A stretch of DNA of 64,000 bases from Streptomyces sp. YIM 121038 (lineage in GTDB: Bacteria; Actinomycetota; Actinomycetes; Streptomycetales; Streptomycetaceae), in assembly GCF_006088715.1 (NCBI RefSeq), contig NZ_CP030771.1, positions 9,918,001 through 9,982,000 on the forward strand, given 5' to 3'. Below, one piece after another: positions 21,415 to 40,875 of this stretch. Every line of letters begins with the position of its first letter. Within the stretch, counting starts at the first letter, position 1. The translations under genes were made by a program, and so were the position numbers. The notes under the pieces were generated by a model. The model searched no databases. It saw nothing but the letters and a program-made list of their open reading frames with translations, and was not told the DNA's origin.

Positions 21415-21899
21415 GGGAGACCAGTATCCCGGGGATGATCGCCGACGTCGCCGGGTTTGTCGCGTGCGAGGACGCGACCGACCACGTCCCGCCACCCGGC
21501 GGCCTCGTGCCCGCCACCGACCTCTGGCCAGGTCAAGCCCACCACTTCTGCGAGGAGTCATCCCTGGCGGCGGCCGAGTCGGCTCTCCCGCTAGGCCCGG
21601 CGCGGGGCGCGATGGGCGTGCTTGTCGACGACGCTACGCGGCGGGGCTCTCCGTCCTTCGGGAGCCGGTCCGGGGACTGTTCCTTCAGGCATTGCGGTGT
21701 ACCGGCGGAAGCGACCCACCCGTCACGGCCAACCGGGTAAGTGTTCTATTCCGGTTGGAGTCATAAATTCCGGGAACGGCGGTTTTCGGCCTCTCCGTCA
21801 CATCTTTCCAGCCATGCTGCATTCGCTCTTTCTTTGATCTGGGGGCGGTGGGACGATCGGACCCCTTCGCTGCCCGGGGATCGACCGGTGGGAGTAACC
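21415..21899. other. 485-bp leader region upstream of the giant operon
   Basis: No convincing gene. GC falls between about 21735 and 21840. TTCCGG occurs twice (21749, 21768) around TCATAAATTCC, and GGAAC at 21774 could be part of an ECF-type -35 element, but I cannot fix a promoter by eye. It presumably carries the promoter of the six-gene operon starting at 21900. Confidence 0.45.
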
Positions 21900-24560
21900 A
21901 TGGCCAGCACGGTTCCTATCACCGCGGATCTTCCCGTCTTTCCGCACCTCGATCTGCACCTTGTGCTGAGCGGCGACCTCCCGCTCAAGATCCAGGTGTT
22001 CAGCCGCACTTTCACCGAGGCCGCACCCCAGCCATTCGTACTGACGGAACAGACGCAGGGCAGCACATTCCACTTCTTCGCGCCGCACCATTCCGTGGGA
22101 GACCGGCTCAACAGGCTCCCTACGGTGAACAGTCAGGGAGTCGTGACAGCTCAGGAACCCGGGGTCTATCTCTTCCAGATCACCGTCGGCGGCGGGTTCG
22201 GTGTGGTGGTGGGCAGACTCCAGGTGCACCAGGAGATCGAGGACTGGTGGTTCGGGAACACCTCCATGACCACAGCGAAGGACAGCAAGTTCGCGCACGC
22301 CCAGCCGTCGCTCTACGCCAAGTTCAGCAACGACTCCGCAGCCGGTACGGACTTGGTCGGCGATATCACAGGGCATGACTACATCGAGCTGAAATCACCG
22401 AGTTCGGACGTGGTGATCTCTTCGGGGGGAAGGCTGCGGGGAGCGGCGGAGACGACGACTCCCGTGATCATCACGGGAGAACTCAAAGGCGCCCACAAAG
22501 AGGGCACCCGCAAAGAGGGCACCGACAAAGCCCATGTCCTTCCGGTGCGCGTGGTCGACTACGCGAAATCCCGGACGACACTCACCCGGGTCAGGGCCAC
22601 GGACGTGGCGAACCATGAGGACCAGTGCAACATGGTCTTCATCGCGGAGGGGTTCCGGGCCCAGGACGCCCAGTTGTTCGACCGCATCGTCCAGCGCACC
22701 GTCCGCGACATGTTCGAAAAGCCGCGACATCAGCCCTACCCGCTGCTGAGCAAGAGTTTCAACGTCTTCTCTTCGTTCGAACCCTCCGAGCAGCAACTCG
22801 TCACCTGCGGCCCCCGCGTCGTGAGCGCGGCGGGAAACGGGGTTGATCTCACCGGCCGCCGCATTCCCGAGTCCGACCCGCGGGGCCTTCCGCCCAACAG
22901 TTACAGCGTGCAGGAGCTGGTCGAGCGCGTGGGTCTGCCCCGGCGCGGCGAGAACCGCTCTCCGCAGCAGTTGAGGGACCTGTGGAAGACGCAGAGCCTG
23001 ACGGACTTCGCCGAAGGCAGGGCGAGCGACCTGGTGGTCGAGACGTGGAAGGCGCACCAGTCGGAGGGGTTCCTCCAGGCGTCGGACACGTTCTACGGCC
23101 TGTACCTCGGCCGCCGGTGGGCCGACGGTGGCAGGTTCCACGGCCAGGGGGAACCCGCGGTCCAGCCGCCCGCCGGCGACGCGCCGAACGCCCCGCGCCT
23201 GAAGGAGTTCATCGACCGGGTCTACGAGTTCTACCGGGTCGCGGGACACCAGACGCTGGAACTCGATCCACGGCGGCACGCCCCCGAGGTGTACGCGGAC
23301 AGCAATGCGGCGAACCCGGGAAATGCGGTTCTCGGCTATCTGGCGGGGCTTCGGCTCGCGGAGCCGCCGAACCTCCCCATCGGGCAGAACTGGGTTCCCG
23401 ACGACACCCGTTTCCGCAAGAGCCGGGGGATGGTAGCGATCATCGCGTACGAATCACTCCTGGGCGGCACGGCCTTCAACAAAGGCACGATGACGGCCTC
23501 GACCGTGGGCAGGCAGGGGAAGGTCGAGTTCACCAAGGCGTCGGGGACCAGACCGGTCATGACGAGGACTCCTCCTCCGCCCGTCGTGGCGAAGGAGCCC
23601 TTGGGGGTCACCGACATCGACCACCTCGTCAACAAGGTGGCCCACGAGTTCGCCCACTCCTTCAACCTGGGGGACGAGTACGAGGACTTCGGCGGCGACC
23701 GGCAGGGAGACAACGACCCCTTCCACGACGTGATATTCGACAACCTGGCGAAGCTCAGCTTCCTGCACCAAGGAGCGCCGCCGCAGGACCGAAAACTCAA
23801 CCCCGGCCGCATCAAGTGGTTCGCGGTTCCCCGGGTGCGGATATCCGGAAAGCTCCTGAAGCCGTCTCAGACGCTGCTGCCCGACATCTTCGAAGTCACG
23901 GTCGGCACCGCCGACATGGGGAAGTGGGTCCAGGCGTTCACGGACAACGCCAAGGTGACGGTGCGCAATTTCACGACCGGCGCGGACAACCGGCAGCTGC
24001 CGCTGTCGGCGGCACCCGCCGACATGCTGACCAATCTGACCATCGCGTCCAGGCCCGATGAGAAGCAGGGCACCCTCTTCCTCCAGACCTCCGGGCCCGT
24101 CGCGGCGATCCCGGTCTTCAAGAAGGGCTCGGTGGTGTTCGTCCAGCGGACGGACCCCTCGGGGCTACCGGTCTTCGTGGTGGACAAGGCGGTGCGGGAC
24201 TTCGTCGCCGACCCCAGTCCCGCGAACCAGCGCAGCCACGGCCCGCTGAACCGGAACCGCGACACGACGAAGCCCTTCGGGAAGAAGGAAGAGGAAACAG
24301 ATCTCCCCATCAACGTGCCGGGCTTCGTGCCACCGAAGTTCGCCTACCAGATGGTGGGGATCTTCGAAGGCGGCAACCACTTCGCGGGCGGCTTCTACCG
24401 GGCGTCGGGCGAATGCAAAATGCGCGGCCAGGACAGAGGCACGACGAACGACGCGGACCTGCGGGGCGTGTTCTGCTTCCTCTGCAAATGGCTGATCGTC
24501 AATCTCATCGACCCGGCCCAGCACGCCCCGCTCGACGCGCACCAGTACCCGAGGGCGTGA
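21900..24560 (+). CDS. M64-like zinc metallopeptidase, first gene of the giant operon
   Basis: An 886-residue protein. The N-terminal 200 residues are beta-rich (LDLHLVLSGDLPLKIQVFS ... GVYLFQITVGGGFGVVVGRL). Then comes an M64-type catalytic region: NMVFIAEGFRAQDAQLFDRIV opens it, FNVFSSFEPSEQ follows, and zinc motif HEFAHSF (His582, Glu583, His586) with GDEYEDFGG closes it, as in IgA peptidase M64 (HEFGHSFxxLADEY). A C-terminal part of about 280 residues is beta-rich with Cys near the end (CKMRG, FCFLCKW). No signal peptide or membrane helix is seen from the ATG at 21900 (GGGAG upstream), unusual since studied M64 enzymes are secreted. It ends one base before the next ATG. Confidence 0.75.
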   Translation: MASTVPITADLPVFPHLDLHLVLSGDLPLKIQVFSRTFTEAAPQPFVLTEQTQGSTFHFFAPHHSVGDRLNRLPTVNSQGVVTAQEPGVYLFQITVGGGFGVVVGRLQVHQEIEDWWFGNTSMTTAKDSKFAHAQPSLYAKFSNDSAAGTDLVGDITGHDYIELKSPSSDVVISSGGRLRGAAETTTPVIITGELKGAHKEGTRKEGTDKAHVLPVRVVDYAKSRTTLTRVRATDVANHEDQCNMVFIAEGFRAQDAQLFDRIVQRTVRDMFEKPRHQPYPLLSKSFNVFSSFEPSEQQLVTCGPRVVSAAGNGVDLTGRRIPESDPRGLPPNSYSVQELVERVGLPRRGENRSPQQLRDLWKTQSLTDFAEGRASDLVVETWKAHQSEGFLQASDTFYGLYLGRRWADGGRFHGQGEPAVQPPAGDAPNAPRLKEFIDRVYEFYRVAGHQTLELDPRRHAPEVYADSNAANPGNAVLGYLAGLRLAEPPNLPIGQNWVPDDTRFRKSRGMVAIIAYESLLGGTAFNKGTMTASTVGRQGKVEFTKASGTRPVMTRTPPPPVVAKEPLGVTDIDHLVNKVAHEFAHSFNLGDEYEDFGGDRQGDNDPFHDVIFDNLAKLSFLHQGAPPQDRKLNPGRIKWFAVPRVRISGKLLKPSQTLLPDIFEVTVGTADMGKWVQAFTDNAKVTVRNFTTGADNRQLPLSAAPADMLTNLTIASRPDEKQGTLFLQTSGPVAAIPVFKKGSVVFVQRTDPSGLPVFVVDKAVRDFVADPSPANQRSHGPLNRNRDTTKPFGKKEEETDLPINVPGFVPPKFAYQMVGIFEGGNHFAGGFYRASGECKMRGQDRGTTNDADLRGVFCFLCKWLIVNLIDPAQHAPLDAHQYPRA

Positions 24561-24561
24561 C

Positions 24562-27500
24562 ATGGCCGACCAGGGCACCTTCGACAAGCTCCTCGCCGAG
24601 ATCGGGCAGGCACTGCTGCCCCTGCGGGAGGCCGTCGCCTCCCCTCAGGCGTTCATCGGCCTCCTCCACCAGCTCGGCTGGACGGTCGACGACCCCCCGG
24701 CCCCGCTGCGTGCGCTCGGCACCACCACGGACACGCTGTACGACAGCCTGCGCCGCCTGCTGGGCGACGGCGGACTCAACGAGGGCGGGCCCGGGCTCCG
24801 CACCCCGGCACCCGGAAAGCCCGAGAGGGCGAGCGCCGCCGCCTCCGCCGACGAGGCGGCCCGCGTACTCGCCGCCGTACAGGGCCTCGTGACCGCGATC
24901 CGCGCCATCGCCGACGCGCCCGACGCGGCCATCCCGCCCCACCTGCGGGCCGACGGCTTCCGCGAGCAGTTCCCCCGCCAGCTCCTCGACCACCTGGTCA
25001 TCACGTACCTGCAACGCTTCCATCCGTCCGTCGGGTTCGGACTGCGCGCGCTCGGCGTCATCAAGGCGGCCTACGTGCCGCCCACGGGCAGCCGCCCCTC
25101 CCACACCCGCATGACACTCGACGTGACCGACGTCCCCAAGGTGCTCGACGATCCGTCGCTCGTGCTGAAGAACGCGTACGGCTGGGGCGGGCCCGACCTC
25201 GACTTCGCGGAGCTGGCCTCCCAGCTCGACAACCTCTTCCTGGGCATGGGCTTCGACGTGCGCGTCGCGCAGCTGTCCGAAGGCGCGGAGACCGCTGTGC
25301 AGGGCCCGCGCACGGACCCGCTGGGCCCGACGGCGACCGCGCTCACCTTCATCGCCTTCGACCAGGCGGTGGGGGAGGAGGAGGCGCGGGCGCGCGGCGC
25401 GGTGCGGCTCGTACGGGTGCCCCCGGCCACCCCGGGCGGGGCGCCGGGCCTCGCGCTGCTGCCCTCGCTGACCGGCTCGCTCGGGGTCCGGTTCGAGCTG
25501 GCGTGCGGCATCGCCATCACGGTGCGCAGCGGCCTCGACCTCCAGGGCGGGGTGGCGCTCCTCGCCCGGCCCGGCGAGGGCGTGGACGTGATCACCGGCT
25601 TCGCGTCGGGCGGCGCCCCCGTGCACGCCAAGGGCGCCATCGAGGTCACGGCCGAGAGCATGGTCGCCGACCGGGCGCCGGTGCTGCTCCTCGGTACGCC
25701 CGACGGCACCCGGCTCCAGTTCCGCGCGCTCGCGGGCACCGGCGGCGTCCGGATCGACGGTGACGACGTGGACGTCTTCGCCGAATTCGACCTCACGGGC
25801 CTGGAGTTCGTGTTCCGGCCGGGGGAGGACGCCGACGGATTCCTCGCCGCAGTGGTTCCGGCCGACGGGTTCGCCGTCGGCGGCGACCTGACCCTCGGGG
25901 TCTCGCACCGCGAAGGACCGTACTTCCGCGGCACGTCGAACCTGGACCTCCAGATCCCGGTGCGCCGACGGCTCGGGCCGGTCGAGATCCAGAGCCTGAC
26001 CGTCTCCGTGACCCCCTCGGGAGGGTCCGTGCCGGTCAGTGTCGGCGCGACGTTCACGGCCGCACTGGGCCCCGTCACCGCAGTGGTGGACAGGGTCGGC
26101 CTCACCGCCCTGTTCGACGGACGCCCCGGGCAGGACGGGAACCTCGGCCCGCTCGACGTCTCCCTCGGCTTCAAGCCGCCCGGCGGCGCGGGCCTCTCGA
26201 TCGACACGGGCGTGGTGCGCGGGGGCGGCTTCCTCGCCTTCGACCTCGCGCGCGGCGAGTACGCCGGGGCGATGGAGCTGGAGTTCGCCGACCTCCTGGA
26301 GCTCAAGGCCATCGGCCTCGTCAGCACCCGGATGCCGGACGGCTCGAAGGGGTTCTCGCTGCTGATCGTGGTCACCGCCGACTTCGGCGAGGGCATCCAG
26401 CTCGGCTACGGCTTCACCCTGCTCGCCGTCGGCGGCCTGATCGGGCTGAACCGCGGCATGAACCTCCAGGCGCTCGCGGAGGGCATCCGCACGGGCTCGA
26501 TCGAGTCCGTGATGTTCCCGCGCGACGTGATCGCCAACGCGCCGCGCGTCCTGTCCGACCTGAACGCGTTCTTCCCGCCGGAGGCCGGCACGTTCCTCAT
26601 CGGCCCGATGGCCAGGATCGGCTGGGGCACCCCGACGCTGGTGAGCATCTCCCTCGCACTGATCATCGAGATCCCCGGCAACCTCTCCGTCCTCGGCACC
26701 CTGCGCGCCACGCTGCCGAACACGAAACTGCCCCTCCTCGACCTGCGCGTCGACTTCTTCGGCGCACTGGAACCCGGCAAGAACCGGCTGTGGTTCGAGG
26801 CCCGCCTCGTGGACTCGCACGTACTGACCATGCCCCTCGACGGGGGCATGGGCGTCCTGGTCGCCTGGGGCGACAACCCCGACCTGGTGCTCACGGTCGG
26901 CGGCTTCCACCCCTCGTACAAGGCACCGGCCCTGCCCTTCGCCGTGCCCGAGCGGGTGTCGATCGACATCCTGCACCGCGACAGGCAACTGATCCGCGTC
27001 TCCGGCTACTTCGCCCTCACCAGCAACACCGCCCAGTTCGGGTCGAAGGCAGAACTCCGGCTCGGCGTCGGCGGGTTCGGCGTCGAAGGACATCTCAGCT
27101 TCGACGCGCTGTTCCAGTTCAACCCCTTCCGGTTCGCCATCGCCATCAGCGCGGAGGTCTCCCTCAAGGCGTTCGGGGTCGGTGTGTTCAGCATCGACCT
27201 GCGGTTCCAGCTGGAGGGCCCGGCCCCCTGGCGGGCGCGCGGCAAGGGATCCATCGGGTTCCTGTTCTTCTCCGTCTCCGCCAACTTCGACATCACCTGG
27301 GGCGAGAACGCCGTCACCACCCTGCCGCCCCTCCTGGTCCTCCCGCTGCTCGCCGCCGAACTGCGCAAGACCGAGGGCTGGCAGACCCGCCTGCCCACCG
27401 GCAGCGGCAAGCCGCTGGTCAGCCTCCGCAGGCTCCCCCCGTCCGACGACCTGGTGCTGCACCCCCTGGGCACCCTGTCCGTACAGCAGCGGGCGCTGCC

Positions 27501-29319
27501 GCTCAACGTGCGCCTCGACAAGGTCGGCCCGCGGCGCGCGGCCGACGGCAGGCGCTTCACCGTCGCGCCCGCGCCGGACAGCGGGCTCGTGCGGATCTCC
27601 GACACCGGCGACAAGTTCGCCATGGCCCAGTACCAGGACATGACCGACGCGGCGAAGCTGTCGAGTCCCGCGTACGAGACCCAGGACACCGGCCTGGAGC
27701 TCACCGCCGCCACGGGCGCCCTGGCATCCGCACGCGTCGTACGCCGCAGCGCGCGCTACGAGCTGCACATCATCGACAGCGCACCCTCCACGAACGGAGT
27801 GCACGGCGCCTCCGGCCCCGACGGCCCGCGCACCGAGCCGCCCGCGCGGCTGTCCGCCGCACGCACCAAGCGGTTCCACAGCGTCAGCCCCGCCGTGTTC
27901 GACGGGTTGCTCCAGGGGAGCAGCACCAGCAGGTCGCCGCTGTCCCGGCGCGAGGCGCTGCTGCGCCAGCCGTTCGCGACGGCCGACACCGTGCGCGTCG
28001 CCGACCAGCGGTTCGTCGTCGCGTACGTGCGCAGCAACGTGCCCGCGCTGCCGCCGCGCGCGCTCGGCCGCAGGTCCACGGGCGCTCCGGTGGACTTCCG
28101 GAGCCAGGCCACGGCGGCCGACGCGCTCGCCGACTTCGTCGCCGCCGACCCGGCGCTCGACGGCCTGCTGCACGTCATCCCCACGTCCGAGGCGGCCGTG
28201 CCCGCCTTCGTGCCCGGCACCTGGGCGCCCGCGGGCACGCTGCCCGCACCGGCCGGCCAGGCGGACACCGTCGTCCTCGCCACCGGGAAGGTACTGATCG
28301 CCGGAGGGTCCGGCCCGACGGGCACGGCACTCGGCGCGACGGCGCTCTTCGACCCGACCGCCAACGCCTGGTCGGCTTCGGCCGCGCTGGCGGCACCCCG
28401 CCGCCTGCACACCACCACCCGGCTCCCCGACGGCAGGGTCCTCGCCGCCGGAGGCCGGGGTACGGACGCCGCGCCCCTGGCCTCCGCCGAGGTGTTCGAC
28501 CCGGCCGCCGCGACGTGGTCCGTGTCGGGCCCGATGGCCGCGGCCAGGTTCGCGCACTCCGCGACGCCGCTGCCCGACGGCCGGGTCCTCGCGGCCGGAG
28601 GCAGCGCCGCCCGCGGCGGGCACGGCTTCGGCGCGCTCCGCTCCGCCGAGGTGTTCGACCCCGCGACCCGGGCCTGGACCGCCACGGCGCCGATGAACGA
28701 CGCCCGCACGGGCCACCAGGCCGTCCTCCTGCACGACGGCCGGGTCCTCGTCGCGGGCGGAGCGCTGCCCACGGGCGGCACCGGCGAAGCGGCCCTCGCC
28801 CACTGCGAGCTGTACGACCCGGCCGACGGCACCTGGACCCCGACCGGCAGCCTCCACACACCCCGCAAGGGACACCAGGCGACCCTGCTGCCCGACGGCC
28901 GGGTCATCGTCACGGGCGGCGAGCCCGCCGTCGCCGCGGACGGCACGTTCAGCCCGCGTGCCCTGGCCTCCACCGAGCTCTACGACCCGGTCACCGGTGC
29001 CTGGACCCCCGCGGCCCCCCTGCCCGGCGGCCGCGCCCGGCACCGCGCGCTGCGCACGCGCGCGGGGGACGTCCTGATCATCGGAGGCACCACGGGCCCC
29101 GGCTTCACCGCGGGCTTCCGCAGCGTGATCGCGTACGCCCCGGCAGCGGGCACCTGGACGCGGCTCGCGGGCCTCGCCCAGGGCAGGTGGGCCACGGCCG
29201 TGGCCGAACTCGCCGACGACCGCGTCCTGGTGACCGGAGGCATCGCCGCGGCCGGCCCCGCCGCGCCGGGACCCGAACCACTCCAGCTCACGGCCACGGC
29301 GGAGGCACTGATCCCCTGA
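24562..29319 (+). CDS. 1,585-residue DUF6603-like protein fused to a kelch propeller
   Basis: Residues about 1-130 are helical with conserved KLLAEIGQALLPLREAV and RQLLDHLVITYLQRF. Residues about 150-930 are a very long beta-rich region; its late part (about 613-925: YGFTLLAVGGLIGLNRGM, FLIGPMARIGWGTP, FEARLVDSHVLTMPL, FSVSANFDITWGE) matches what I know as DUF6603, of unknown function. After a spacer with a Ser/Arg-rich segment (about 930-1210), six kelch blades (about 1213-1585) repeat the PDGRVLAAGG ... AEVFDP ... W pattern. No signal peptide. The ATG is one base after the upstream stop. It is plausibly a scaffold or binding protein; function unknown. Confidence 0.7.
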   Translation: MADQGTFDKLLAEIGQALLPLREAVASPQAFIGLLHQLGWTVDDPPAPLRALGTTTDTLYDSLRRLLGDGGLNEGGPGLRTPAPGKPERASAAASADEAARVLAAVQGLVTAIRAIADAPDAAIPPHLRADGFREQFPRQLLDHLVITYLQRFHPSVGFGLRALGVIKAAYVPPTGSRPSHTRMTLDVTDVPKVLDDPSLVLKNAYGWGGPDLDFAELASQLDNLFLGMGFDVRVAQLSEGAETAVQGPRTDPLGPTATALTFIAFDQAVGEEEARARGAVRLVRVPPATPGGAPGLALLPSLTGSLGVRFELACGIAITVRSGLDLQGGVALLARPGEGVDVITGFASGGAPVHAKGAIEVTAESMVADRAPVLLLGTPDGTRLQFRALAGTGGVRIDGDDVDVFAEFDLTGLEFVFRPGEDADGFLAAVVPADGFAVGGDLTLGVSHREGPYFRGTSNLDLQIPVRRRLGPVEIQSLTVSVTPSGGSVPVSVGATFTAALGPVTAVVDRVGLTALFDGRPGQDGNLGPLDVSLGFKPPGGAGLSIDTGVVRGGGFLAFDLARGEYAGAMELEFADLLELKAIGLVSTRMPDGSKGFSLLIVVTADFGEGIQLGYGFTLLAVGGLIGLNRGMNLQALAEGIRTGSIESVMFPRDVIANAPRVLSDLNAFFPPEAGTFLIGPMARIGWGTPTLVSISLALIIEIPGNLSVLGTLRATLPNTKLPLLDLRVDFFGALEPGKNRLWFEARLVDSHVLTMPLDGGMGVLVAWGDNPDLVLTVGGFHPSYKAPALPFAVPERVSIDILHRDRQLIRVSGYFALTSNTAQFGSKAELRLGVGGFGVEGHLSFDALFQFNPFRFAIAISAEVSLKAFGVGVFSIDLRFQLEGPAPWRARGKGSIGFLFFSVSANFDITWGENAVTTLPPLLVLPLLAAELRKTEGWQTRLPTGSGKPLVSLRRLPPSDDLVLHPLGTLSVQQRALPLNVRLDKVGPRRAADGRRFTVAPAPDSGLVRISDTGDKFAMAQYQDMTDAAKLSSPAYETQDTGLELTAATGALASARVVRRSARYELHIIDSAPSTNGVHGASGPDGPRTEPPARLSAARTKRFHSVSPAVFDGLLQGSSTSRSPLSRREALLRQPFATADTVRVADQRFVVAYVRSNVPALPPRALGRRSTGAPVDFRSQATAADALADFVAADPALDGLLHVIPTSEAAVPAFVPGTWAPAGTLPAPAGQADTVVLATGKVLIAGGSGPTGTALGATALFDPTANAWSASAALAAPRRLHTTTRLPDGRVLAAGGRGTDAAPLASAEVFDPAAATWSVSGPMAAARFAHSATPLPDGRVLAAGGSAARGGHGFGALRSAEVFDPATRAWTATAPMNDARTGHQAVLLHDGRVLVAGGALPTGGTGEAALAHCELYDPADGTWTPTGSLHTPRKGHQATLLPDGRVIVTGGEPAVAADGTFSPRALASTELYDPVTGAWTPAAPLPGGRARHRALRTRAGDVLIIGGTTGPGFTAGFRSVIAYAPAAGTWTRLAGLAQGRWATAVAELADDRVLVTGGIAAAGPAAPGPEPLQLTATAEALIP

Positions 29320-29392
29320 CCACGTCCCGGACCGGCTCCCCGCCCGCGGACCGGTCCACCACCCGTACGGACGGCGCACCCGAGGAGCCTCG

Positions 29393-30562
29393 ATGACCAC
29401 CACCTCCCCCCAGGCCACCGGGTCCTGGACGCCCGCTCCCGGCCTGCCCCGGGCCGCCACCTGGTACGGGCAGCACGACAACGCCGTGCCGATCGCGGGC
29501 GGAAGCGCCGTCCTGGTCGCGGGGGGCGCCGACAGCACCTCGGCAGCCGTCAGCCATGCCGCCGTCCACGATGCCGCCGCGGGAACCTGGCTCCCGGTCG
29601 GAGCCCTGAACACGCCCCGCCGACTGCACACCCTGACCCTCCTGCCGGGCGGGAAGGTCCTCGCCACCGGCGGCACCAGCGGCCCCGCACCGGGCGCCCC
29701 CGCCCTCGCGACGACCGAGCTGTACGACCCGGCGACCCGCGCCTGGACCACCAGCGGCGCCATGGCGGGACCCCGCGCGGGCCACAGCGCGGTCCTGCTC
29801 GCCGACGGCAAGGTCCTCGTCGCCGGAGGCACCACGTTCCGCTCGCCCCAGAGCGCCAAGGCCCTGCGTACGGCAGAGCTCTACGACCCCGCGGCGGGCA
29901 CCTGGTCGGCGGCCGGCGACATGACGGAGGCCCGCACGGGACACACCGCCCTGGCGCTCGCGGACGGAGCCGTCCTGGTCTGCGGCGGCACCGCACCGGT
30001 CGGCAGCGCCGACGAACCCGCCCTCGCCTTCTGCGAGCTGTACGACTCCACCACGAAGAAGTGGGCCCCGACCGGAAGCCTGCGCGCGGCCCGCAGCCAC
30101 CACCAGGCCACCAGGCTCTCCGACACCACGGTCCTGGTCACCGGCGGCCTCGCGCCCCAAGCGCCCGGCGGCGGCGTGTTCGACCCGTTCAGCCAGCGCA
30201 CCGCCGAGCTGTACGACCTGGCCGCCGGGGCGTGGAAGCCCGCGGCCGACATGCCCTCGGGACGCGCACTGCACCGCGCGCTCCCGTTCGGCCCGAGCGG
30301 GGTCCTCGTCGTCGGGGGCGCCGCCGACGACACGGACGAGGCGGGCTACCGCAGCGCCCTCCTCTACGACTCGGTCGCGGACACCTGGTCCCCGGTCGCG
30401 GGCCTCGCCGACGGCCGGTGGGCGTTCGCCGCCGCGCCGCTGCCGGGCGGGAAGGTCCTGGTCACCGGAGGCACGGCCCGCACCGGGGCGGCCGCCGCCG
30501 ACCCCGCCCTGCCCGAACTGACGGCGAGCACGGAGGTCTTCACCGGCGGGGGCGCCTCGTGA
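29393..30562 (+). CDS. Free-standing kelch-repeat beta-propeller
   Basis: A 389-residue protein that is kelch repeats throughout: six blades with GGKVLATGG, ELYDPATRAWTTSG, DGAVLVCGG, LYDSVADTWSPV and similar. It is clearly paralogous to the kelch end of the preceding 1,585-residue protein (shared PRRLHT, RTGH and RALHRAL signatures), so one arose by duplication of the other. GAGGAG precedes the ATG. No export signal. Its stop overlaps the next start in GTGA. Likely a binding or assembly module of the same system. Confidence 0.85.
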   Translation: MTTTSPQATGSWTPAPGLPRAATWYGQHDNAVPIAGGSAVLVAGGADSTSAAVSHAAVHDAAAGTWLPVGALNTPRRLHTLTLLPGGKVLATGGTSGPAPGAPALATTELYDPATRAWTTSGAMAGPRAGHSAVLLADGKVLVAGGTTFRSPQSAKALRTAELYDPAAGTWSAAGDMTEARTGHTALALADGAVLVCGGTAPVGSADEPALAFCELYDSTTKKWAPTGSLRAARSHHQATRLSDTTVLVTGGLAPQAPGGGVFDPFSQRTAELYDLAAGAWKPAADMPSGRALHRALPFGPSGVLVVGGAADDTDEAGYRSALLYDSVADTWSPVAGLADGRWAFAAAPLPGGKVLVTGGTARTGAAAADPALPELTASTEVFTGGGAS

Positions 30563-33500: not shown

Positions 33501-33768
33501 GCCGACACCGGTGGAGGTGTGGAACGACCTGTCGTGGGCCGACGTCGACCCGCGCGGGCGCGGCTTCCTCGAACTCGACCCCCACCTCACCGTGCCCCTG
33601 GCCCACTTCGACGGCTCCGAGGACGACCAGGAGAAGCGCGAACAACGCGCCGAGGACGAGAACCTGCCGCTCTGGCACGCCGGCCTCAGCTCCGCCGACC
33701 TCGCCTACATCCTCTTCCAGGTGCCGGTCCTGGTGGCCGTCCACGCACAGGAAATGCTGCCGCGATGA
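30559..33768 (+). CDS. 1,069-residue unassigned giant-operon protein
   Basis: Starts at GTG 30559 inside a GTGA overlap: MTTNAYSFLPWLRAGIA. I do not recognise a named domain. Visible features are the conserved-looking opening, an EFCDEDFPWRYSPA segment followed by LTPWLALVVLAA, a central proline-rich part with PTDPVDSLPHSPDFRLREIGD, a helical region (VDAFVPHLDLLPQNSITLLANNREFIESYLAGLNHEMARELLWREYPTDQRG) and a C-terminal beta-rich part. No signal peptide and no convincing membrane helices. The length, coupling and tone suggest a large structural or assembly subunit. Stop and next start overlap as ATGA. Confidence 0.62.
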   Translation: MTTNAYSFLPWLRAGIATRIAGDPGTSARASLPVRLRISGEPLEGGPLTQEIERSVQLYGPGDVTGVDPRAISRREPRPGTTNYEPNYLAHIEFCDEDFPWRYSPAPPDDATKRLTPWLALVVLAAQAPADGTAPEFTESPQGSGPLPVIAVRDTAATLPRPDQLGAWAHVHVNGSLTGPVASDSTAPALAALAEVLRTHADDACSRLMCPRRLRPDTAYEAFLVPAFETGRLAGLGLDPAGSPGAVYLAWGPPYAGRPASGHLPYYHRWQFTTGSTGDFESLVRLLRPQRPDPRVGRRDIDVHRSPGLGLPGIQTPVALGGVLPMGGALKVPQPPGTEPDEAENWDNFHDRPPPAVPYPHPFQSALAALLNLADDYQRHTPAAAHAALAATPLDAPPPAAEPDPILTPSLYGRWHALTPRLLTRQDGTPVPAPENRNWVHRLNLDPRFRAAAQWGTRVVQARQEELMGAAWEQVGDVLAANARIRAAQLAREVGHVLQTKHLDPVGGTTAAERSAAASGRSLRLTAPAHARVTSAVTGTPAAAAAPDGQAEKVAVGFRVAASQVAGAPLSPAMRRITRPGSRLMRTLPFTPDRPPDALVPRMDAASGAVTAAPVKTTPAGLVTAERLAAALHPGPPPTDPVDSLPHSPDFRLREIGDAVVPRTGTTDSPEAARFKGALRELYQTLNVATSVGRAAPRTRLEVAAATGAVLSALRADTTVPRTLLGSVGLPERLRPFADDFIEAMAYPVFDLPTYQALLDQSVDAFVPHLDLLPQNSITLLANNREFIESYLAGLNHEMARELLWREYPTDQRGTPFRQFWDPRTAQPRPGESAEQRRERCYDIPPVHTWPTTGRLGRNAHDRAGTGPQKEDLVLVVRGELLKRYPTAAVYAQRAEWPLGTDGLPDLTQERVPVLLPDEERPPPSLVRFPLYEARIEPDITLLGFDLDADEARGAPPADAGWFFLLKERPGDPRFGVDDAEPTPVEVWNDLSWADVDPRGRGFLELDPHLTVPLAHFDGSEDDQEKREQRAEDENLPLWHAGLSSADLAYILFQVPVLVAVHAQEMLPR

Positions 33769-36700
33769 CGCACTCGACGCCACCCCCTGCCCCGCCCTCG
33801 GCCACAGCGGCGACCGCCACGCAGCTCAGTGACGACTTCCCCGTCCTCCTCGGCCCCGTACGGATCGAGACCCGCTTCACCCCGACCGAGCTCCTGATCC
33901 GGGTCTTCCCCGACGAGTGGGCCGTCGACAAGTTCGAGCCCCGGCCCACACCGGCCGAGATCGCCGCCCTCGACGCGTACTGGACCGCGCGCTGGGCCGC
34001 CGCGCGCGAGCCCGCCGCGCTCCGCGCCGCCCAGCTGGAGCTGGCCGGGCGGATCGCCCCCGGGCGGGCGGCCTGGCTCCTCGGCGTGCGGCTCCCGGCC
34101 AACCCCGGCGAGGAGCCGACCGCCGTCCCCGCCGGCACGACGGTGCTCGTGGTCGTGGGCCCCAAGCCGGTGGCCGCCGCGGACCGGCAGCCGACCTCCG
34201 CCTACTGGACCGCGGTCTGGCGCGCCCACGGCGACCGCCACCTGCTGCGGCAGGCCGACACCGCGCTGCTCACCGCGGTCGGCGCCACCCGGGCCGCCGC
34301 CATCAGGGGCCTGCGCCCCGCAGGTGTCGAAGGGGCGCCCGCCGGCACGGGCGACGCCGTCCACGTGGCCTTCCTGGTGCTGCCGCCCCCCGCGGCGGGA
34401 TCCACCGAACCCGAGTCATGGACCCGTGCCGCGCGCGCCCGGCTCCTTCCCGAGCGCTTCCAGGCACTGGGCTACGCCGACGGAGAGCAGGTCCTGTCCG
34501 CGACCGGCGCGCCCGTGCCCGACACGCTGCCCGTGAGCCCCGACCCCACAGCCGCCGACCAGATCTCCGTGAACCCGGTCACCGGGGCCCTGCACGTCCC
34601 CGACGAACTGCGCTGGCTCACCGACTTCGACCGCGCCGTCGCCCTCGGCATGGGCCTGCGCGTCCCGCTGGACGACCGCACGCGCGGCGGCCTCGACCGG
34701 CTGCTCGTGTTCGGCCTGCGCAAGGAGACCGACCCGCTCGCGTCAGCGCAGCAGCTCACCGACCTGATCACCCGGCAGCTGCGCGGCCCCGACGGATACG
34801 CGCTGCTGCCGCAGGGCACCCCGACCAACAACACCGAACGGCTGCCCGCGGGACGCGGCGACGCCGACGAGGCGGAGTCGGCCCTGCGCCCGGCCGCGGC
34901 ACCGGCCGCCGAGGCCACCGACTGGACCACCGAGACCGACGGCCGGCGCTTCGCCGAACTCCTCGGCCTCCCGGCCACAGTCCTCGACGGCATGCCGCAC
35001 GCGGACGGCACCGACCAGCGCGAGGCCCGCGCCGCCAACACCGCCCTGTGGCCCGTGACGTGGGGCTCCTTCCTCCAGACCGCCCTGCACCCCGTCCTCG
35101 ACGCCGAGACCGTCCGCAAGACCAGGGACTTCTTCCTGCGCCACGTCTCCGGGCGGGGCCCGGTCCCGGCCGTCCGCATCGGCAGCCAGCCGTACGGCAT
35201 CCTGCCCACCACCGCGTTCTCCCGCCTCGCCTGGCCCGACTCGGCCGCGCACCTGCGCGGCCTGCACCGGCTGCTGAGCGCGGCGGCCCAGGACTGGCAG
35301 GCCGCCGCGGACAAGGTCGCCCACCTCGGTGAGGACACCGGCGACCCCCACCAGCTCCTCCTGGACATCCTCGCCCTGCACCCCACCTCGGCCGAGTACC
35401 ACCAGCGGTACGCACACAGCGTCGAGGACCTCTTCAACCGCGAGAACCTCGGCGGCCGCGGCGCCGACGTCCTCCCCGCGCTCGACCGCCTGAACATGCC
35501 CGGACCGCTGCGCGCACTCCTCGCCCGCCTCGGCCACCCCGACGGCGGCCCGGACCACGACCCCGACCTGCTGCGCAAGCTGTTCACCGACGCCCAGCAG
35601 CCGTTCCTCGCCCCCCTGGTCGACGACCGGCCCCTGTCCGAGACCGACCCCGTACGCGCCTGCACCTCCGACGGCCGCAACTACCTGCGCCTGCTCGCCG
35701 ACGAAGCGGGCGTCAGCCTCGACGCGGTCCGCCTCGAACGCGGCTTCACCGACGACGCGCCGCCCGCCGCGCTGCTGTACCTGCTGCTGCGGCACGCGGT
35801 GCTGCTCGGCTGGGCCGACGCCGCCCGCGACCTCGCCGTCGCCGCCGGTGCGGCCACGCCCGACGAACTCGCCGCCGACCCGCCGTTCGTGCACGTACGG
35901 ATACCGGAGCCCGGACAGGCACTGCCGAGCGAGAGCCGCTTCCGCAGGCTGTACTCGCCCGAGCGCGCCGTGACGGGAAGCCCCGACCAGCTCCTGGCCG
36001 ACTTCCTCCCGGGCGTGCTCGGCAAGACGCCCGCCACCGCCGAACTCGCCGAGCAGATCAAGGCCCTCGGCATCCTCGCCGACCTGCCCACGGCCCGCCT
36101 GGAGCGGCTCCTCGCCGAACACCTCGACCTCGCCACCTACCGGCTCGACGCCTGGCGCATCGGCCTGGCCACCGCACGCCTGGAGGAACTGCGGTTCGGC
36201 CCGAACGGCGGCGCGGTGCCCCGCCCGGGCCTGCACCTCGGCGCCTACGGCTGGCTGGAGGACGTCCGGCCCTGGGCGGCGCAGCTCACCCCCGTCGAGC
36301 TGACCGGCGAACTCGCGGAGATCTTCGGTGACGGCGAGCCGCTCCTGCACGACCCGCGGAACGCGGGCTTCGTCCACGCGCCCTCGCCCGGCCACGCCAG
36401 GACCGCCGCCGTCCTGCGCGCCGGATACACGGCCAACGCCGGCCCCGACCACCCCGACACCTTCGCCGTGAACCTCAGCTCGGAGCGGGTGCGGACCGCG
36501 CTCGGCCTGCTCGACGGCCTGCGGCAGGGCCAGCCGCTCGGCGCGCTGCTCGGCTACCGGCTCGAACGCGGCCTGCACGACCGGCACGACGAGGCGGAGG
36601 TCGACCGCTTCGTCACCGCGCTGCGCGCACAGTTCCCGCTGCGCGCCGGAAAGATCCCGCAGACGGCGCCCGACCCCGCCGACCACGTCCCGATCGAACA

Positions 36701-39014
36701 GGTCGAGGCGCGCAACGTCGTGGACGGCCTCGCCCTGGTCCGGCACGTGACCCGTACCGGGGTCCCGGACACCTACCCGTTCGGCCTGGACGGCGTGCTG
36801 CCCCCCGCCACCCCGGGCCAGGCCGCGGCCCTGACCGCCGAAGTCCGCGCGCTCCTCGACGTGCACGACGCGCTCGCCGACCTCGCCGTGGCCGAAAGCG
36901 CCCACCAGGCCCTCGCCGGGAACACCGAGCGCGCCTCCGCGACCCTCGACGCCTACGCCAAGGCGGGCTTCCCGCCCCCGCCCTCCGTGGTCGAGACCCC
37001 GCGCGGCGGCACCACCCTCACCCACCGCCTCGCCCTGCGGCTGCGCCCCGGCCTGCGCCCGGACGGCCGCGCGACCCCCAGGGCACAGGCCGAACCCGCC
37101 GTCGACGACTGGCTGGAGGGGCTGCTGCCGGACGCGGACGACGTCGTCGCCCGCGTCACCTGGACCGACCCGGTGAACGGACAGGACCGAAGCCGGAACA
37201 TCGCCCTCGACGACCTCGGACTCGACCCGATCGACCTGCTGTGGACGGTCCGCTCCACGGGCGCCGAGGCGATGACCGACCTGGAGGACCGGATCATCGG
37301 CGCCGTCATCGACCGCGACCACCCGCGACCGGACACGGCCCTGACCATCCGCCACACCGCACGCGTCCCCGGCAAGGTCACCTTCTTCGAACTCTCCCCG
37401 CTCATCGGGGCGTTGCGCACCCTGCTGACCACCTCGCGGCCCCTGCGCACCAGCGACCTCGTGCCCGCCGCGGGCACCGCGCCCGTCGACCGCGCCGCCG
37501 ACGACGCGGTGTCCCTGCCCCGCGCCCGCCCGGCCGCCGTACGCGCCTCCCTCGCCGCACTCGACGAGGAGGCCGCCGACTACGTCCACGACTTCGCACC
37601 GCTCTACCCCGGCCCGCCCGCGCCGCCGGCGCGGGCCGCGGTGCTCACCGCCATCGACGGCTTCCTCACCCGATACGCCGCGCTCGCCACCACGGCGTCC
37701 GGATTCGGGATGGTACGCAGCGGCTGGGGCGAGCTCGTCCAGTGGCGCGGGAGCGCCTACGCCGACGTGCTCGCCGCGGTCGCCACCACCGCGGCACGCA
37801 TGACACGGGCACTGGCCGACGCCGACGCGCTGCTCGCCCGCTACGACGCGCTGCCGCCCGCCACCGCCGACAGCGAACGCTTCCGCGTGCTCCAGCAGGC
37901 CGAGCGCCTCCTCACCACCCGCCCGACCACCCCCCTCCCCAACAGGCCCGCGCAACTGCGCGGGATCGTCGGCAGTCGCCGCACCACCTTCCGCAACCGG
38001 CTCCAGGCCCTCAACCGGCAGGCACAGACGGCGAAGAGCACGCTCAGCGGGCTGCTCGCCGAGGTGTCCGACCTGCTGCCGCTCACCGACATCGACCCCG
38101 CCGGGCTCGACCTGACACCCGTCGAGGACCGGGTCGTCGCCTTCGGCCGCGAACTCCTCGACCGGACCCGCGCCCTGCGCACCGACATCGCCGACCGACT
38201 GGCCTCGGCGGACACCGCGCTCACCGCGTACGACCAGGCGGTGACCGCCCCCGACCGGGTCGCGGCGGGCACCGAGGCACTCCGGGCGATGCTCGGCCCC
38301 GAGGCCGTCGTCGTACCCGAGTTCACGCCGCCCGCCGCGCTCACCGCCGAGTGGACCAAGGCCCGCAGGGACAGCGGCAAGCTCCTGGAGCACCTGACCC
38401 GGCCCCCGGTGGACAGGGACTTCCCGCTCGACGACTGGATCCACGGGCTCGCGCGGGTCCGCGAGACGCCCCGCCTCTGGGAGCGCGCCGTGCAGCTCAG
38501 CTCCGCCCTGCGCGACGACGACGAGGAGCCCGAGCTGGCTCCCGTCCAGCTCCCGTACCGCCAGAACGACCACTGGCTCGGCATGGAGTTCGCCCCCGGC
38601 GCCGCGATCACCGAGGACAGGCTGCTGTTCACGGCGCACTACGCCGACGGCGCGGACGAGGACGAGCCGCACTGCGGACTGCTCCTCGACGAGTGGACCG
38701 AGGTCATCCCCGCCGAGCGGGAGACCACCGGGATCACCGCCGACGTGGACCGCCCCGACTCCGAGCCGCCCCAGGCCATGCTCCTCGTCGCACCGCCCGT
38801 ACGCACCGGCACCTGGGACACCTCCGACCTGGTGGCCGCGGTCCACGAGACCTTCGCGATGGCCAGGGCCCGCGCCGTGGAGCCCGTACATCTGGAGGAC
38901 AGCGCCTACGCGCACCTGCTGCCCGCCACGCTCCTGTCGGCGACCACCCCGCCGATCACCATCAGCACCGATCTGTCGATCGCGAACGTCCGCTGGAAGG
39001 CCGACCATGACTGA
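33765..39014 (+). CDS. 1,749-residue unassigned giant-operon protein
   Basis: ATG 33765 in an ATGA overlap. After a Thr/Pro/Ala-rich lead the sequence opens with FPVLLGPVRIETRF ... LLIRVFPDEWAVDKFEP, and later has RIGSQPYGILPTTAFSRL, NYLRLLADEAGV and long Ala/Leu/Arg-rich helices. A coiled-coil-like stretch (RLQALNRQAQTAKSTLSGLLAEVSDLL) lies near residue 1415, and the end (LLPATLLSATTPPITISTDLSIANVRW) is beta-like. No signal peptide, no membrane segment and no catalytic signature that I can name. It is the largest product of the operon and overlaps the next gene by 8 nt. I infer a structural role; it could also be a large enzyme of a family I do not know. Confidence 0.6.
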   Translation: MTHSTPPPAPPSATAATATQLSDDFPVLLGPVRIETRFTPTELLIRVFPDEWAVDKFEPRPTPAEIAALDAYWTARWAAAREPAALRAAQLELAGRIAPGRAAWLLGVRLPANPGEEPTAVPAGTTVLVVVGPKPVAAADRQPTSAYWTAVWRAHGDRHLLRQADTALLTAVGATRAAAIRGLRPAGVEGAPAGTGDAVHVAFLVLPPPAAGSTEPESWTRAARARLLPERFQALGYADGEQVLSATGAPVPDTLPVSPDPTAADQISVNPVTGALHVPDELRWLTDFDRAVALGMGLRVPLDDRTRGGLDRLLVFGLRKETDPLASAQQLTDLITRQLRGPDGYALLPQGTPTNNTERLPAGRGDADEAESALRPAAAPAAEATDWTTETDGRRFAELLGLPATVLDGMPHADGTDQREARAANTALWPVTWGSFLQTALHPVLDAETVRKTRDFFLRHVSGRGPVPAVRIGSQPYGILPTTAFSRLAWPDSAAHLRGLHRLLSAAAQDWQAAADKVAHLGEDTGDPHQLLLDILALHPTSAEYHQRYAHSVEDLFNRENLGGRGADVLPALDRLNMPGPLRALLARLGHPDGGPDHDPDLLRKLFTDAQQPFLAPLVDDRPLSETDPVRACTSDGRNYLRLLADEAGVSLDAVRLERGFTDDAPPAALLYLLLRHAVLLGWADAARDLAVAAGAATPDELAADPPFVHVRIPEPGQALPSESRFRRLYSPERAVTGSPDQLLADFLPGVLGKTPATAELAEQIKALGILADLPTARLERLLAEHLDLATYRLDAWRIGLATARLEELRFGPNGGAVPRPGLHLGAYGWLEDVRPWAAQLTPVELTGELAEIFGDGEPLLHDPRNAGFVHAPSPGHARTAAVLRAGYTANAGPDHPDTFAVNLSSERVRTALGLLDGLRQGQPLGALLGYRLERGLHDRHDEAEVDRFVTALRAQFPLRAGKIPQTAPDPADHVPIEQVEARNVVDGLALVRHVTRTGVPDTYPFGLDGVLPPATPGQAAALTAEVRALLDVHDALADLAVAESAHQALAGNTERASATLDAYAKAGFPPPPSVVETPRGGTTLTHRLALRLRPGLRPDGRATPRAQAEPAVDDWLEGLLPDADDVVARVTWTDPVNGQDRSRNIALDDLGLDPIDLLWTVRSTGAEAMTDLEDRIIGAVIDRDHPRPDTALTIRHTARVPGKVTFFELSPLIGALRTLLTTSRPLRTSDLVPAAGTAPVDRAADDAVSLPRARPAAVRASLAALDEEAADYVHDFAPLYPGPPAPPARAAVLTAIDGFLTRYAALATTASGFGMVRSGWGELVQWRGSAYADVLAAVATTAARMTRALADADALLARYDALPPATADSERFRVLQQAERLLTTRPTTPLPNRPAQLRGIVGSRRTTFRNRLQALNRQAQTAKSTLSGLLAEVSDLLPLTDIDPAGLDLTPVEDRVVAFGRELLDRTRALRTDIADRLASADTALTAYDQAVTAPDRVAAGTEALRAMLGPEAVVVPEFTPPAALTAEWTKARRDSGKLLEHLTRPPVDRDFPLDDWIHGLARVRETPRLWERAVQLSSALRDDDEEPELAPVQLPYRQNDHWLGMEFAPGAAITEDRLLFTAHYADGADEDEPHCGLLLDEWTEVIPAERETTGITADVDRPDSEPPQAMLLVAPPVRTGTWDTSDLVAAVHETFAMARARAVEPVHLEDSAYAHLLPATLLSATTPPITISTDLSIANVRWKADHD

Positions 39015-40875
39015 GCCACGCATCGCGGACCTCGCCGCGGCGCTGCGGGACCGCGCGCACCCCGCCGTCGGCGTCTGGAACCGGCTCGAAGGCAGGCCGC
39101 GCACCACCGACTTCGACCGCGCGCTGCGCGCGGAGGTGCGGGACGCGCTGTGGCTGCTGACCCGGCAGTGGCAGCTGGGCGAGTTCCGGGGCGCCGACGC
39201 GGGCTCGCCCGTGACCGCCCGGTACGCCGTGACCACCAGCACGCCCAGCCGGTTCCGCCCGGGGAACGGACCGGCCGAGCCGCTGCCCACCGACAGGCCG
39301 CTGGAGACGGTCGCCGAACGCCGGCCCCTGCCCTTCACCCTCGGTGCCGACCGGATCTCCTTCGACCTGCGCCTCGCGCTCGGCCGCCGCTGGCTCAAGC
39401 TGGTCTCCGGCGTGCCGGTGCTGCGGGCGCACGACGTGCCCGAGCAGTTCACGGCGCGCTATCCCGTCGCGCTGCCCGACCCCGCGGACGAGGCCGACCG
39501 CGCGCTGGTCGCGCACCCGGAGGTCTGGGCGACCCTGCAGGCGCTCGCGGGCCGCCGCATGGACGGGCACCTGCTGTACCAGCACCTGAAGGCGGGTGGA
39601 CACCCCTCGGACGGCATCGACCTGCCCCGCCCGCACCGCGCGACCCTGGACGCGCTCGGACCCCGACTGACCTCCTGGTTCGACCAGTTGATCGACTCCC
39701 CGGCCGGGGTGACCGCGGAGCGGCCGCAGGGGAACGCCACCTGGGACGCCAGGCGCCTCGAGCACTCCTTCGCCATCTCGGCACCCGCCCCCGGCGGCGG
39801 GGAGCGCGTCCTCACGGCCGCCGAGCACCCGGGCGGCCCACTCGACTGGCACGCCTTCTCCACCGACTCCGGCGGCTCGCTCGGCGGCACGGATCCGGCA
39901 CCCGTACCGGCCGCACGCACCGTGTTCCCGGCGCCGGTCAGCTTCGCGGGGATGCCCCTGCCGCGCTGGTGGGCGGTGGAGGACGGCAACACGAACTTCG
40001 CCGCCGTCACCCCGGACAGCACCGACCTGGCCCGGCTCGTCTTCCTGGAGTTCGCGCTCGTCTTCAGCAACGACTGGTACCAGCTTCCCTGCGACGTGCC
40101 CGCCGGAACACTGGCCACCGTCCAGGGACTCGCGGTCACCGACGTCTTCGGGCAGCGCCGGTGGATCACCCCGGCGGGCACGGGCGAGCGCCACGACTGG
40201 CAGCGCTGGTCGATGTTCACGCTCGGCACCGACGGCGAGACCGGCCTGCTCCTGCCGCCGGGCACCCCGAAGGTCGCCACCGGCCCCCCGCTGGAGGGCG
40301 TGGCGCTCGTACGGGACGAGAGCGCCAACCTCGTCTGGGGCATCGAGGAGACGGTCCAGCTCGCCCACGGCGGAGGGCGCAACGGCGACGAGGCCGCCGC
40401 CGAGAGCCTCGCCCAGCGCCGCAGGCTCCACCCGCCGCCACCGGCGGACGACCCGCGCGCCGACCTCACCTACGAGATCGCGAGCCCGGTCCCCGAGAAC
40501 TGGATCCCCTTCATCCCCGTCCATGTGCCGGGGGACAGCCGGAACGTGCAACTCCAGCGTGCCGCGATGCCCAGCGAGGTGGACGGCACCCCGGTCCGGC
40601 CCCGCACGTCCCTGCTGCGGGAGGGCCTTGACGCGGGGCGGCCGTACTTCCTCAACGAGGAGGAGGTCACGCGCACCGGAACCCGGGTCACCGTCGCCTT
40701 CAACAGGACCCGGTGGCGGGACGGCCGCGTCGTCGTCTGGCTCGCGGCCCAACGCGCCACGGGCCACGGCGAACGCTCCAGCGGCCTCGCCTTCGACCTC
40801 CTGAAGAACGCCTCCGCCTCCCCGCCGCAGATGTCCGACGCGGACCGCCGGGCCCGGCGGACGCCGTCCTCGTAG
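39007..40875 (+). CDS. 622-residue unassigned last gene of the giant operon
   Basis: The start ATG lies in ATGACTGA, overlapping the upstream stop by 8 nt. Early residues contain a striking block, DALWLLTRQWQLGEFRGADAGSPV, then RISFDLRLALGRRWLKLV and several Trp-rich segments (MPLPRWWAVEDGNTNFA; FSNDWYQLPCDVPAG). The rest is beta-rich and ends in a basic tail. No signal peptide or membrane helix. I cannot name the family; the tight coupling makes it part of the same complex or pathway as the other five proteins. The gene ends in a 243-bp convergent gap. Confidence 0.62.
   Translation: MTEPRIADLAAALRDRAHPAVGVWNRLEGRPRTTDFDRALRAEVRDALWLLTRQWQLGEFRGADAGSPVTARYAVTTSTPSRFRPGNGPAEPLPTDRPLETVAERRPLPFTLGADRISFDLRLALGRRWLKLVSGVPVLRAHDVPEQFTARYPVALPDPADEADRALVAHPEVWATLQALAGRRMDGHLLYQHLKAGGHPSDGIDLPRPHRATLDALGPRLTSWFDQLIDSPAGVTAERPQGNATWDARRLEHSFAISAPAPGGGERVLTAAEHPGGPLDWHAFSTDSGGSLGGTDPAPVPAARTVFPAPVSFAGMPLPRWWAVEDGNTNFAAVTPDSTDLARLVFLEFALVFSNDWYQLPCDVPAGTLATVQGLAVTDVFGQRRWITPAGTGERHDWQRWSMFTLGTDGETGLLLPPGTPKVATGPPLEGVALVRDESANLVWGIEETVQLAHGGGRNGDEAAAESLAQRRRLHPPPPADDPRADLTYEIASPVPENWIPFIPVHVPGDSRNVQLQRAAMPSEVDGTPVRPRTSLLREGLDAGRPYFLNEEEVTRTGTRVTVAFNRTRWRDGRVVVWLAAQRATGHGERSSGLAFDLLKNASASPPQMSDADRRARRTPSS

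What the first reader, a model, noticed from the sequence alone, without database searches (positions are those of the whole stretch)
21900..40875. Six-gene, 19-kb operon of giant unassigned proteins with an M64-like peptidase and two kelch propellers
Gene spacing is 1 nt, 73 nt, then three overlaps of 4, 4 and 8 nt, so the six products should be made together. They total about 6,300 residues, yet four lack a named function and none has a signal peptide or membrane helix. I see no tail-sheath, baseplate, tube, AAA+ or secretion ATPase sequence, so it does not look like a phage tail or contractile injection system. Inference: a large cytosolic or non-classically released protein assembly, processed or armed by the peptidase.
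Basis: partly seen in the sequence, partly recalled or inferred. Interest (0 to 1): 0.85.

Follow-up and report, generated by a model that had tools for sequence, protein, structure and literature searches.

The report
Four-protein platform with swappable enzyme
Bacteria from at least ten phyla share an undescribed set of four large proteins made together with one enzyme that differs from strain to strain (various proteases, a phospholipase, a phosphatase, an oxidase), which looks like a carrier with an exchangeable working part.

Summary
The six genes are real and spaced as described and are no local oddity. The DUF6603 protein, g4, g5 and g6 form a fixed-order cassette in ten phyla. In the window g4, g5 and g6 match no Pfam, NCBIfam or PADLOC family and no solved structure. 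The gene before DUF6603, an M64 peptidase here, is an exchangeable enzyme slot: trypsin/NAL1-like, two kinds of S8, M64, M14, phospholipase D, PhoD-like, GlxA-like. It lies within 100 nt of DUF6603 in 50 of 53 loci; its class is scattered almost randomly over the g6 tree. A C-terminal domain (WHR, my name) is shared by slot trypsin-like and S8 enzymes; all 26 matches in 50 cassette genomes lie in the slot. Thirty of 66 g4 proteins carry a two-helix membrane hairpin; the 31 kelch-bearing loci, the window's clade, lack it. Best reading: a platform that docks and deploys an enzyme at a membrane. The gene system is strongly supported; whether deployment is outward or inside the cell is not. I found no description in print.

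The parts
21900..24560 (+). g1, slot enzyme: M64-like metallopeptidase (886 aa)
   Evidence: PF09471, weak PDB matches 4df9 and 3p1v, start conserved; same enzyme class in the slot of 8 fetched actinobacterial loci
23643..23678 (+). zinc-site motif HEFAHSFNLGDE of g1
24562..29319 (+). g2, core: helical N-part, DUF6603, C-terminal kelch propeller (1585 aa)
   Evidence: PF20248 E 1.8e-122 at residues 468-1030, kelch families at about 1236-1560
25963..27651 (+). DUF6603 domain; residues 301-1030 of g2 have strong amphipathic-strand periodicity
   Evidence: moment at 170 degrees z 5.9 against shuffles
28267..29247 (+). C-terminal kelch propeller of g2 (clade-specific; limits approximate)
29393..30562 (+). 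g3, kelch propeller (389 aa, clade-specific)
   Evidence: kelch in 31 of the 66 loci with a scored g4, one change on the g6 tree
30559..33768 (+). g4, core (1069 aa), no known family
   Evidence: 2639 homologues
32449..32478 (+). approximate place in g4 (residues 631-640) where relatives carry a two-helix membrane hairpin; absent here
33765..39014 (+). g5, core (1749 aa), no known family
   Evidence: 1470 homologues
39007..40875 (+). g6, core (622 aa), no known family, last gene of the cassette
   Evidence: 2142 homologues; model pLDDT 79.3, pTM 0.73 without PDB or viral match at E<=0.001

Best explanation
This is one member of a pan-bacterial, patchily distributed cassette in which four large proteins (DUF6603 protein, g4, g5, g6) form a platform and one enzyme, encoded directly upstream and probably translated with them, is the exchangeable working part. 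Steps: (1) platform and enzyme are co-produced in the cytosol (shown at gene level; no classical export signals by a crude test). (2) The enzyme is recruited to the platform: in trypsin-like and S8 types by the C-terminal WHR domain, in GlxA-like and M14 types perhaps by the CFI-box (inferred from domain sharing). (3) In about half of the relatives g4 ties the assembly to the inner face of the cytoplasmic membrane through a two-helix hairpin, and the long amphipathic strand region of DUF6603 is a candidate membrane- or lipid-facing part (sequence evidence, inferred role). (4) The enzyme is deployed at or across a membrane against something outside the cell, most likely competitors or their material (inferred, the weakest step). 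In the window's clade the hairpin is absent and two kelch propellers are present, which I read as a soluble or surface-binding version. The M64 peptidase would then be the payload here, not a processing factor.
For: Fixed order across ten phyla with small gaps: 66 of 70 g4-g5 gaps lie between -20 and +51 nt and 70 of 72 g5-g6 gaps between -26 and +44 nt. Slot gene on the same strand and within 100 nt of DUF6603 in 50 of 53 loci, against 4 of 75 for the gene after g6. Eight enzyme classes in one slot. Enzyme class changes at least 27 times on a g6 tree with 47 labelled rows; 200 shuffles mean 31.4, minimum 25, 3 at or below 27. WHR: in 25 of 77 upstream proteins, ending within 24 residues of the C-terminus, on two unrelated peptidase folds; 26 matches in 18 of 50 cassette genomes, all 26 on the same strand and 1.3-3.0 kb upstream of the DUF6603 match; 0 of 296 sampled actinobacterial genomes. 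g4 hairpin with positive flanks on both sides: K+R 70 and 77, D+E 35 and 33 in 12-residue flanks of 30 proteins. No signal-peptide-like start in 80 g6, 72 g5 and 70 g4, and in 1 of 40 DUF6603 proteins.
Against: No experiment, and no fold for any core protein: the g6 model matches nothing, and g4, g5 and DUF6603 were not modelled. WHR was not found in 276 core proteins, so the docking partner is unknown; the window's own genome has no WHR. 52 of 77 upstream proteins have no WHR. A diverged WHR-like tail occurs on a Chloroflexota protein whose 13-kb contig holds no cassette gene. No ATPase, multi-pass channel or secretion component was recognised. Absence of the hairpin and presence of kelch coincide on one clade, so they are not independent observations (kelch 1 change, hairpin 2). 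30 of 40 DUF6603 proteins and 7 of 72 g5 also have a borderline hydrophobic stretch, so a membrane helix there is not excluded. Three of 53 slot genes are farther than 100 nt away, and L076 and L083 carry g6 without g5 beside it.
Confidence: 0.5

Rival explanations
1. Intracellular conflict system: the platform senses an invader (for example a phage) at the membrane and releases the docked enzyme inside the producing cell, in the manner of effector-associated-domain (EAD) systems.
For: Exchangeable peptidases recruited by small terminal domains resemble the EAD principle as described in passages of PMC8195603 and PMC7159879; enzymes mostly lack export signals; patchy presence: 7 of 296, 4 of 198 and 4 of 251 sampled genomes, each count including the centre genome.
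Against: No NTPase recognised (one of 33 g4 relatives touches the inactive-STAND profile at E 0.092), no copy of WHR in the core, no PADLOC hit. GlxA-like oxidase, M14 and PhoD-like enzymes are usually extracytoplasmic (recalled).
Confidence: 0.25
2. A dedicated non-classical export route or injection device for signal-less enzymes.
For: Enzyme classes typical of secreted hydrolases, with a signal-like start in only 3 of 52 nearest slot proteins; membrane hairpin in g4 and amphipathic strand region in DUF6603.
Against: No energy-coupling protein, no multi-pass channel, no tail-type homology recognised.
Confidence: 0.12
3. Protein shell or nanocompartment: g4, g5 and g6 enclose a hazardous enzyme, like encapsulins with different cargo enzymes.
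For: One conserved chassis with varied enzymes and C-terminal domains resembles cargo loading (recalled analogy); no export signals.
Against: Core sizes (622-1749 aa) and the membrane hairpin are unlike known shells (recalled); the g6 model has no significant structural match of any kind.
Confidence: 0.1
4. Unrelated neighbours: an ordinary operon whose enzyme neighbour is fortuitous.
For: Several slot proteins have no family.
Against: 50 of 53 slot genes within 100 nt against 4 of 75 downstream of g6; WHR confined to the slot in cassette genomes.
Confidence: 0.03

Closest known systems
Effector-associated-domain (EAD) conflict systems (Kaur et al. 2020, 2021; passages seen)
   Same: small terminal domain shared by different peptidase effectors that go with a conserved core
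   Different: no STAND/MoxR/vWA NTPase recognised; the core lacks the WHR domain; the slot also holds phospholipase D, phosphatase and oxidase; the core proteins belong to no named family except DUF6603
Extracellular contractile injection systems and type VI secretion (recalled)
   Same: conserved apparatus with exchangeable enzymes
   Different: no sheath, tube, spike, baseplate or AAA+ match in g1-g6 and none recurring in relatives; g6 model without a significant viral or PDB match
Bacterial gasdermins with neighbouring proteases (recalled)
   Same: variable protease beside a protein with amphipathic strands
   Different: the amphipathic region is about 730 aa, there are four core proteins, and non-protease enzymes occur in the slot
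Encapsulins (recalled)
   Same: one chassis, varied cargo enzymes
   Different: no shell-protein match seen, membrane hairpin in g4 of relatives
M64 (IgA) peptidase family, PF09471
   Same: g1 scores just over the cut-off and has HExxH
   Different: no signal peptide by a crude test, long N-terminal part, sits in the slot

Membership tests
DUF6603 (PF20248) | profile match over the cut-off across the domain | tested here: met
   409.9 bits against 27, positions 2-501 of 502
Peptidase M64 (PF09471) | profile match over the cut-off and HExxH | tested here: met
   27 against 26 bits (in pieces); HEFAH; a relative scores 38.7
Contractile injection system / phage tail | sheath, tube, baseplate or AAA+ homologue among the genes | tested here: not met
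   Pfam, NCBIfam and PHROGs on g1-g6. PHROG matches lie in the kelch parts of g2 and g3 (one, phrog_16120, is annotated virion structural protein, E 1.8e-12, over kelch repeats) plus one of unknown function for g5 (E 0.017). Pfam at E<=10 on 29, 33 and 26 relatives of DUF6603, g4 and g5 gave no recurring tail family (one DUF6603 protein touches Phage_portal at 0.31)
Contractile injection system / phage tail | fold of a core protein like a tail protein | tested here: inconclusive
EAD conflict system | tag domain shared between core protein and effectors (homotypic) | tested here: not met
   WHR in 0 of 276 core proteins at E<=10; the named EAD families themselves were not searched
EAD conflict system | NTPase core | tested here: not met
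   no NTPase profile among g1-g6; among relatives a single g4 touches iSTAND at E 0.092
Known anti-phage defence system | PADLOC component | tested here: not met
   0 of 6 proteins match at E<=0.1
Encapsulin / nanocompartment | closed shell | not testable with these tools
   needs microscopy

The most novel reading that the evidence does not exclude
An undescribed kind of bacterial molecular device, present in at least ten phyla, in which a private four-protein platform (three of the proteins without any recognised relative outside the system) captures one exchangeable enzyme through dedicated docking domains and deploys it at or across a membrane; the window's clade has kelch propellers in place of membrane anchoring.
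Probability: 0.45. Interest if true: 0.92.

Novelty: categorically new. Interest (0 to 1): 0.8.

Why it matters
A conserved multi-protein system with over a thousand homologues each of g4, g5 and g6 has no name, apart from DUF6603 no family model, and no paper that I could find. If it is an enzyme-deploying platform, it adds a new kind to the short list of modular bacterial delivery or conflict machines. It also offers a ready test: the WHR domain predicts which enzymes dock, and can be removed or attached to a reporter.

Tried and rejected
Considered and rejected: phage tail or injection system (no homology recognised); prophage origin (44 stretches of viral contigs matched a pattern, none encodes a relative); peptidase as maturation factor (the slot also holds non-peptidases); chance neighbourhood.

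Weak points of the labels: 'CD?', 'abH', 'M15?', 'PKDonly' and 'unk' are my reading of sequences without a decisive Pfam hit; I count these nine rows as unassigned. The trypsin-like class rests on weak Pfam/NAL1 scores, mutual similarity and GDSGS in 14 of 19 such proteins. The S8 and S8b motif patterns were incomplete in several members. Gene calls in fetched loci come from my own codon-usage script and have uncertain starts; the slot search looked only at same-strand genes. One search left out two cassette genomes (L041, L050), and L050 has WHR in its slot.

Papers: DUF6603, 0 papers; CFI-box, 0 papers; other term searches, seen as listings of the best 4 to 12 papers, showed no description of this gene set. 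PMC8195603 and PMC7159879 were seen as passages only. No bioRxiv and few subscription papers are held.

Full report
Observation. The window lies at G000:C1:9918001-9982000 of an 11.1-Mb genome; the closest listed g4 homologue, 98% identical, is from Streptomyces sp. MNP-20. The start of g1 at 21900 is supported by a conserved ATG and GGAG in three relatives. Family searches name only DUF6603 and kelch repeats in g2, kelch in g3, and M64 in g1; g4, g5 and g6 match nothing in Pfam, NCBIfam or PADLOC at E<=0.1. PHROG matches fall on the kelch parts, and one weak match of unknown function on g5 (E 0.017).

Distribution. Protein searches gave 2639, 2142 and 1470 homologues of g4, g6 and g5 at E<=0.001 (each limited to about 8000 candidates, 120 listed). 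Listed names are almost all 'hypothetical' or 'uncharacterized'; UniRef names one g6 homologue 'Phage tail protein' and one g4 homologue 'DUF2169 domain-containing', which no profile search here bore out. They come from ten phyla: Actinomycetota 40, Pseudomonadota 12, Bacteroidota 11, Chloroflexota 8, Cyanobacteriota 3, Acidobacteriota 2, and one each of Myxococcota, Vulcanimicrobiota, Gemmatimonadota and Bacillota. Presence is sparse: 7 of 296 sampled actinobacterial genomes, four of them with partial matches of under 200 residues or split, 4 of 198 in the phylum of a Chitinophaga, 4 of 251 in the phylum of an Anaerolineaceae genome, two of them partial; each count includes the centre genome. 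No relative was found among viral contigs.

Core cassette. In the 80 loci, g5 (whole or a piece) lies just upstream of g6 in 77; the exceptions are L064, whose contig begins in g6, and L076 and L083. g4 was called in 70; of the ten others, seven contigs begin inside g5 or g6 and three (L057, L076, L083) remain unexplained. A DUF6603 or kelch piece is found in 66. By whole-genome search DUF6603 is in 31 of 32 and 29 of 30 of the genomes asked, six genomes being in both sets; the two misses are those of L089 and L060. Of the six further actinobacterial genomes that rang, four keep DUF6603-g4-g5-g6 in this order although g6 is only 30-36% identical, one with g5 and g6 fused; the other two gave only a g6 piece or nothing in my script. 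Downstream of g6 nothing is conserved: the most frequent cluster occurs in 7 of 80 loci, and the next gene is on the same strand in 37 of 75 and also within 100 nt in only 4.

The slot. I fetched 60 regions around DUF6603 genes, some of them second copies in one genome. 54 held a DUF6603 gene that my query found; in one the contig ends before any upstream gene. Of the other 53, the nearest upstream same-strand gene lies between -71 and +85 nt in 50. In the window this gene is the M64 peptidase. Elsewhere it is trypsin/NAL1-like, subtilase S8 of two kinds (three tandem copies in L170), M64 in eight loci, M14 carboxypeptidase, phospholipase D, PhoD-like phosphatase, or a GlxA-like kelch oxidase; several have no family. 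Of 47 labelled rows on a g6 tree, 38 fall in these eight classes and nine are unassigned. The class changes at least 27 times (18 times for the 38 assigned rows); shuffled labels give means of 31.4 and 22.9, with 3 of 200 and 2 of 200 shuffles at or below the observed value. So there is slight clustering, but the enzyme is exchanged almost independently of the platform. The tree is a quick one; 35 of 77 inner branches are well supported.

Docking domains. Twenty-five of 77 upstream proteins, trypsin-like and S8 alike, end in a domain of about 120 residues with invariant E, L, W, R and P, mostly reading W-H-R, which I call WHR (alignment A6). In 50 cassette genomes it occurs 26 times in 18 genomes, and all 26 lie on the same strand 1.3-3.0 kb upstream of the DUF6603 match. 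It was found in 0 of 296 sampled actinobacterial genomes, of which 7 have g6; the tool notes that an empty answer alone shows nothing, and one search is the positive counterpart. In the Chloroflexota sample it was found in 3 of 251: the centre's cassette, a diverged tail lacking the W-H-R motif on a contig without cassette genes, and a weak match in a frame that looks like a glycosyltransferase and is probably chance (that reading is mine). g6 was found in 4 of the same 251, only the centre in common. A6 was built from slot proteins, so it favours them. The CFI-box domain NF041770 occurs on a GlxA-like oxidase (38.8 bits, just under the cut-off of 40) and on the M14 enzyme (56.3 bits).

Membrane hairpin and kelch. 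Of 66 g4 proteins that were scored, 30 have an uncharged hydrophobic block, mostly 35-51 residues, around residues 590-690, flanked by positive charge on both sides. By the positive-inside rule (recalled) this places most of g4 in the cytosol, tied to the membrane. The 31 loci with kelch lack it, 5 loci have neither, none has both. Kelch changes once and the hairpin twice on the tree, so these are one or two evolutionary events, not a statistical association. The window belongs to the kelch clade.

Interpretation. That these genes are one system, that the enzyme place is exchangeable, and that a private C-terminal domain marks many of the enzymes are shown at the level of sequence and gene order. 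That WHR docks the enzyme on the platform is an inference from its confinement to the slot. That the platform works at a membrane is an inference from the hairpin in relatives. Whether the enzyme acts outside the cell or inside, as in EAD systems described in PMC8195603 and PMC7159879 (passages), cannot be decided here. I prefer outside because the enzyme classes are mostly extracytoplasmic elsewhere (recalled), although only 3 of 52 nearest slot proteins gave a signal-like start in a crude test.

Novelty. No known system shares g4, g5 or g6 with this one in the searches made, and no paper naming it was found in the open-access library. I therefore rate the gene system as categorically new, with the mechanism unproven.

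Noticed in passing
L180, L181, L183, L184 (and part in L178): A second kind of DUF6603 cassette: DUF6603 protein, then a protein of about 560-790 aa, then in four of the five loci one of up to about 1260 aa. About 100 residues near the N-end of the second protein are distantly related to g4 (hhalign probability 86.8).
   Followed up: partly
L013 12191-18496: g5 and g6 are fused into one open frame of 2101 aa in genome G193.
   Followed up: no
L076, L187, L188 (Nitrosomonas MAG_20): DUF6603 is split between two distant places of the chromosome and g6 stands without g5; rearrangement or assembly fault.
   Followed up: no
L170 4842-10704: Three tandem slot enzymes of one cluster (the one scanned is S8) before one DUF6603 gene.
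   Followed up: no
L216 2695-4449: A 584-aa Chloroflexota protein with a diverged WHR-like tail on a 13-kb contig without recognised cassette genes.
   Followed up: partly
L149 and L174, upstream of the GlxA-like slot gene: Two further small genes are shared by these two loci, in operon-like array with the oxidase.
   Followed up: no
window 24505-29859, strand -: A 1784-aa open frame runs antisense to g2; probably only an effect of high G+C.
   Followed up: no
window 21750-21900: The stretch upstream of g1 is partly conserved in three Streptomyces relatives, a possible leader or promoter.
   Followed up: no
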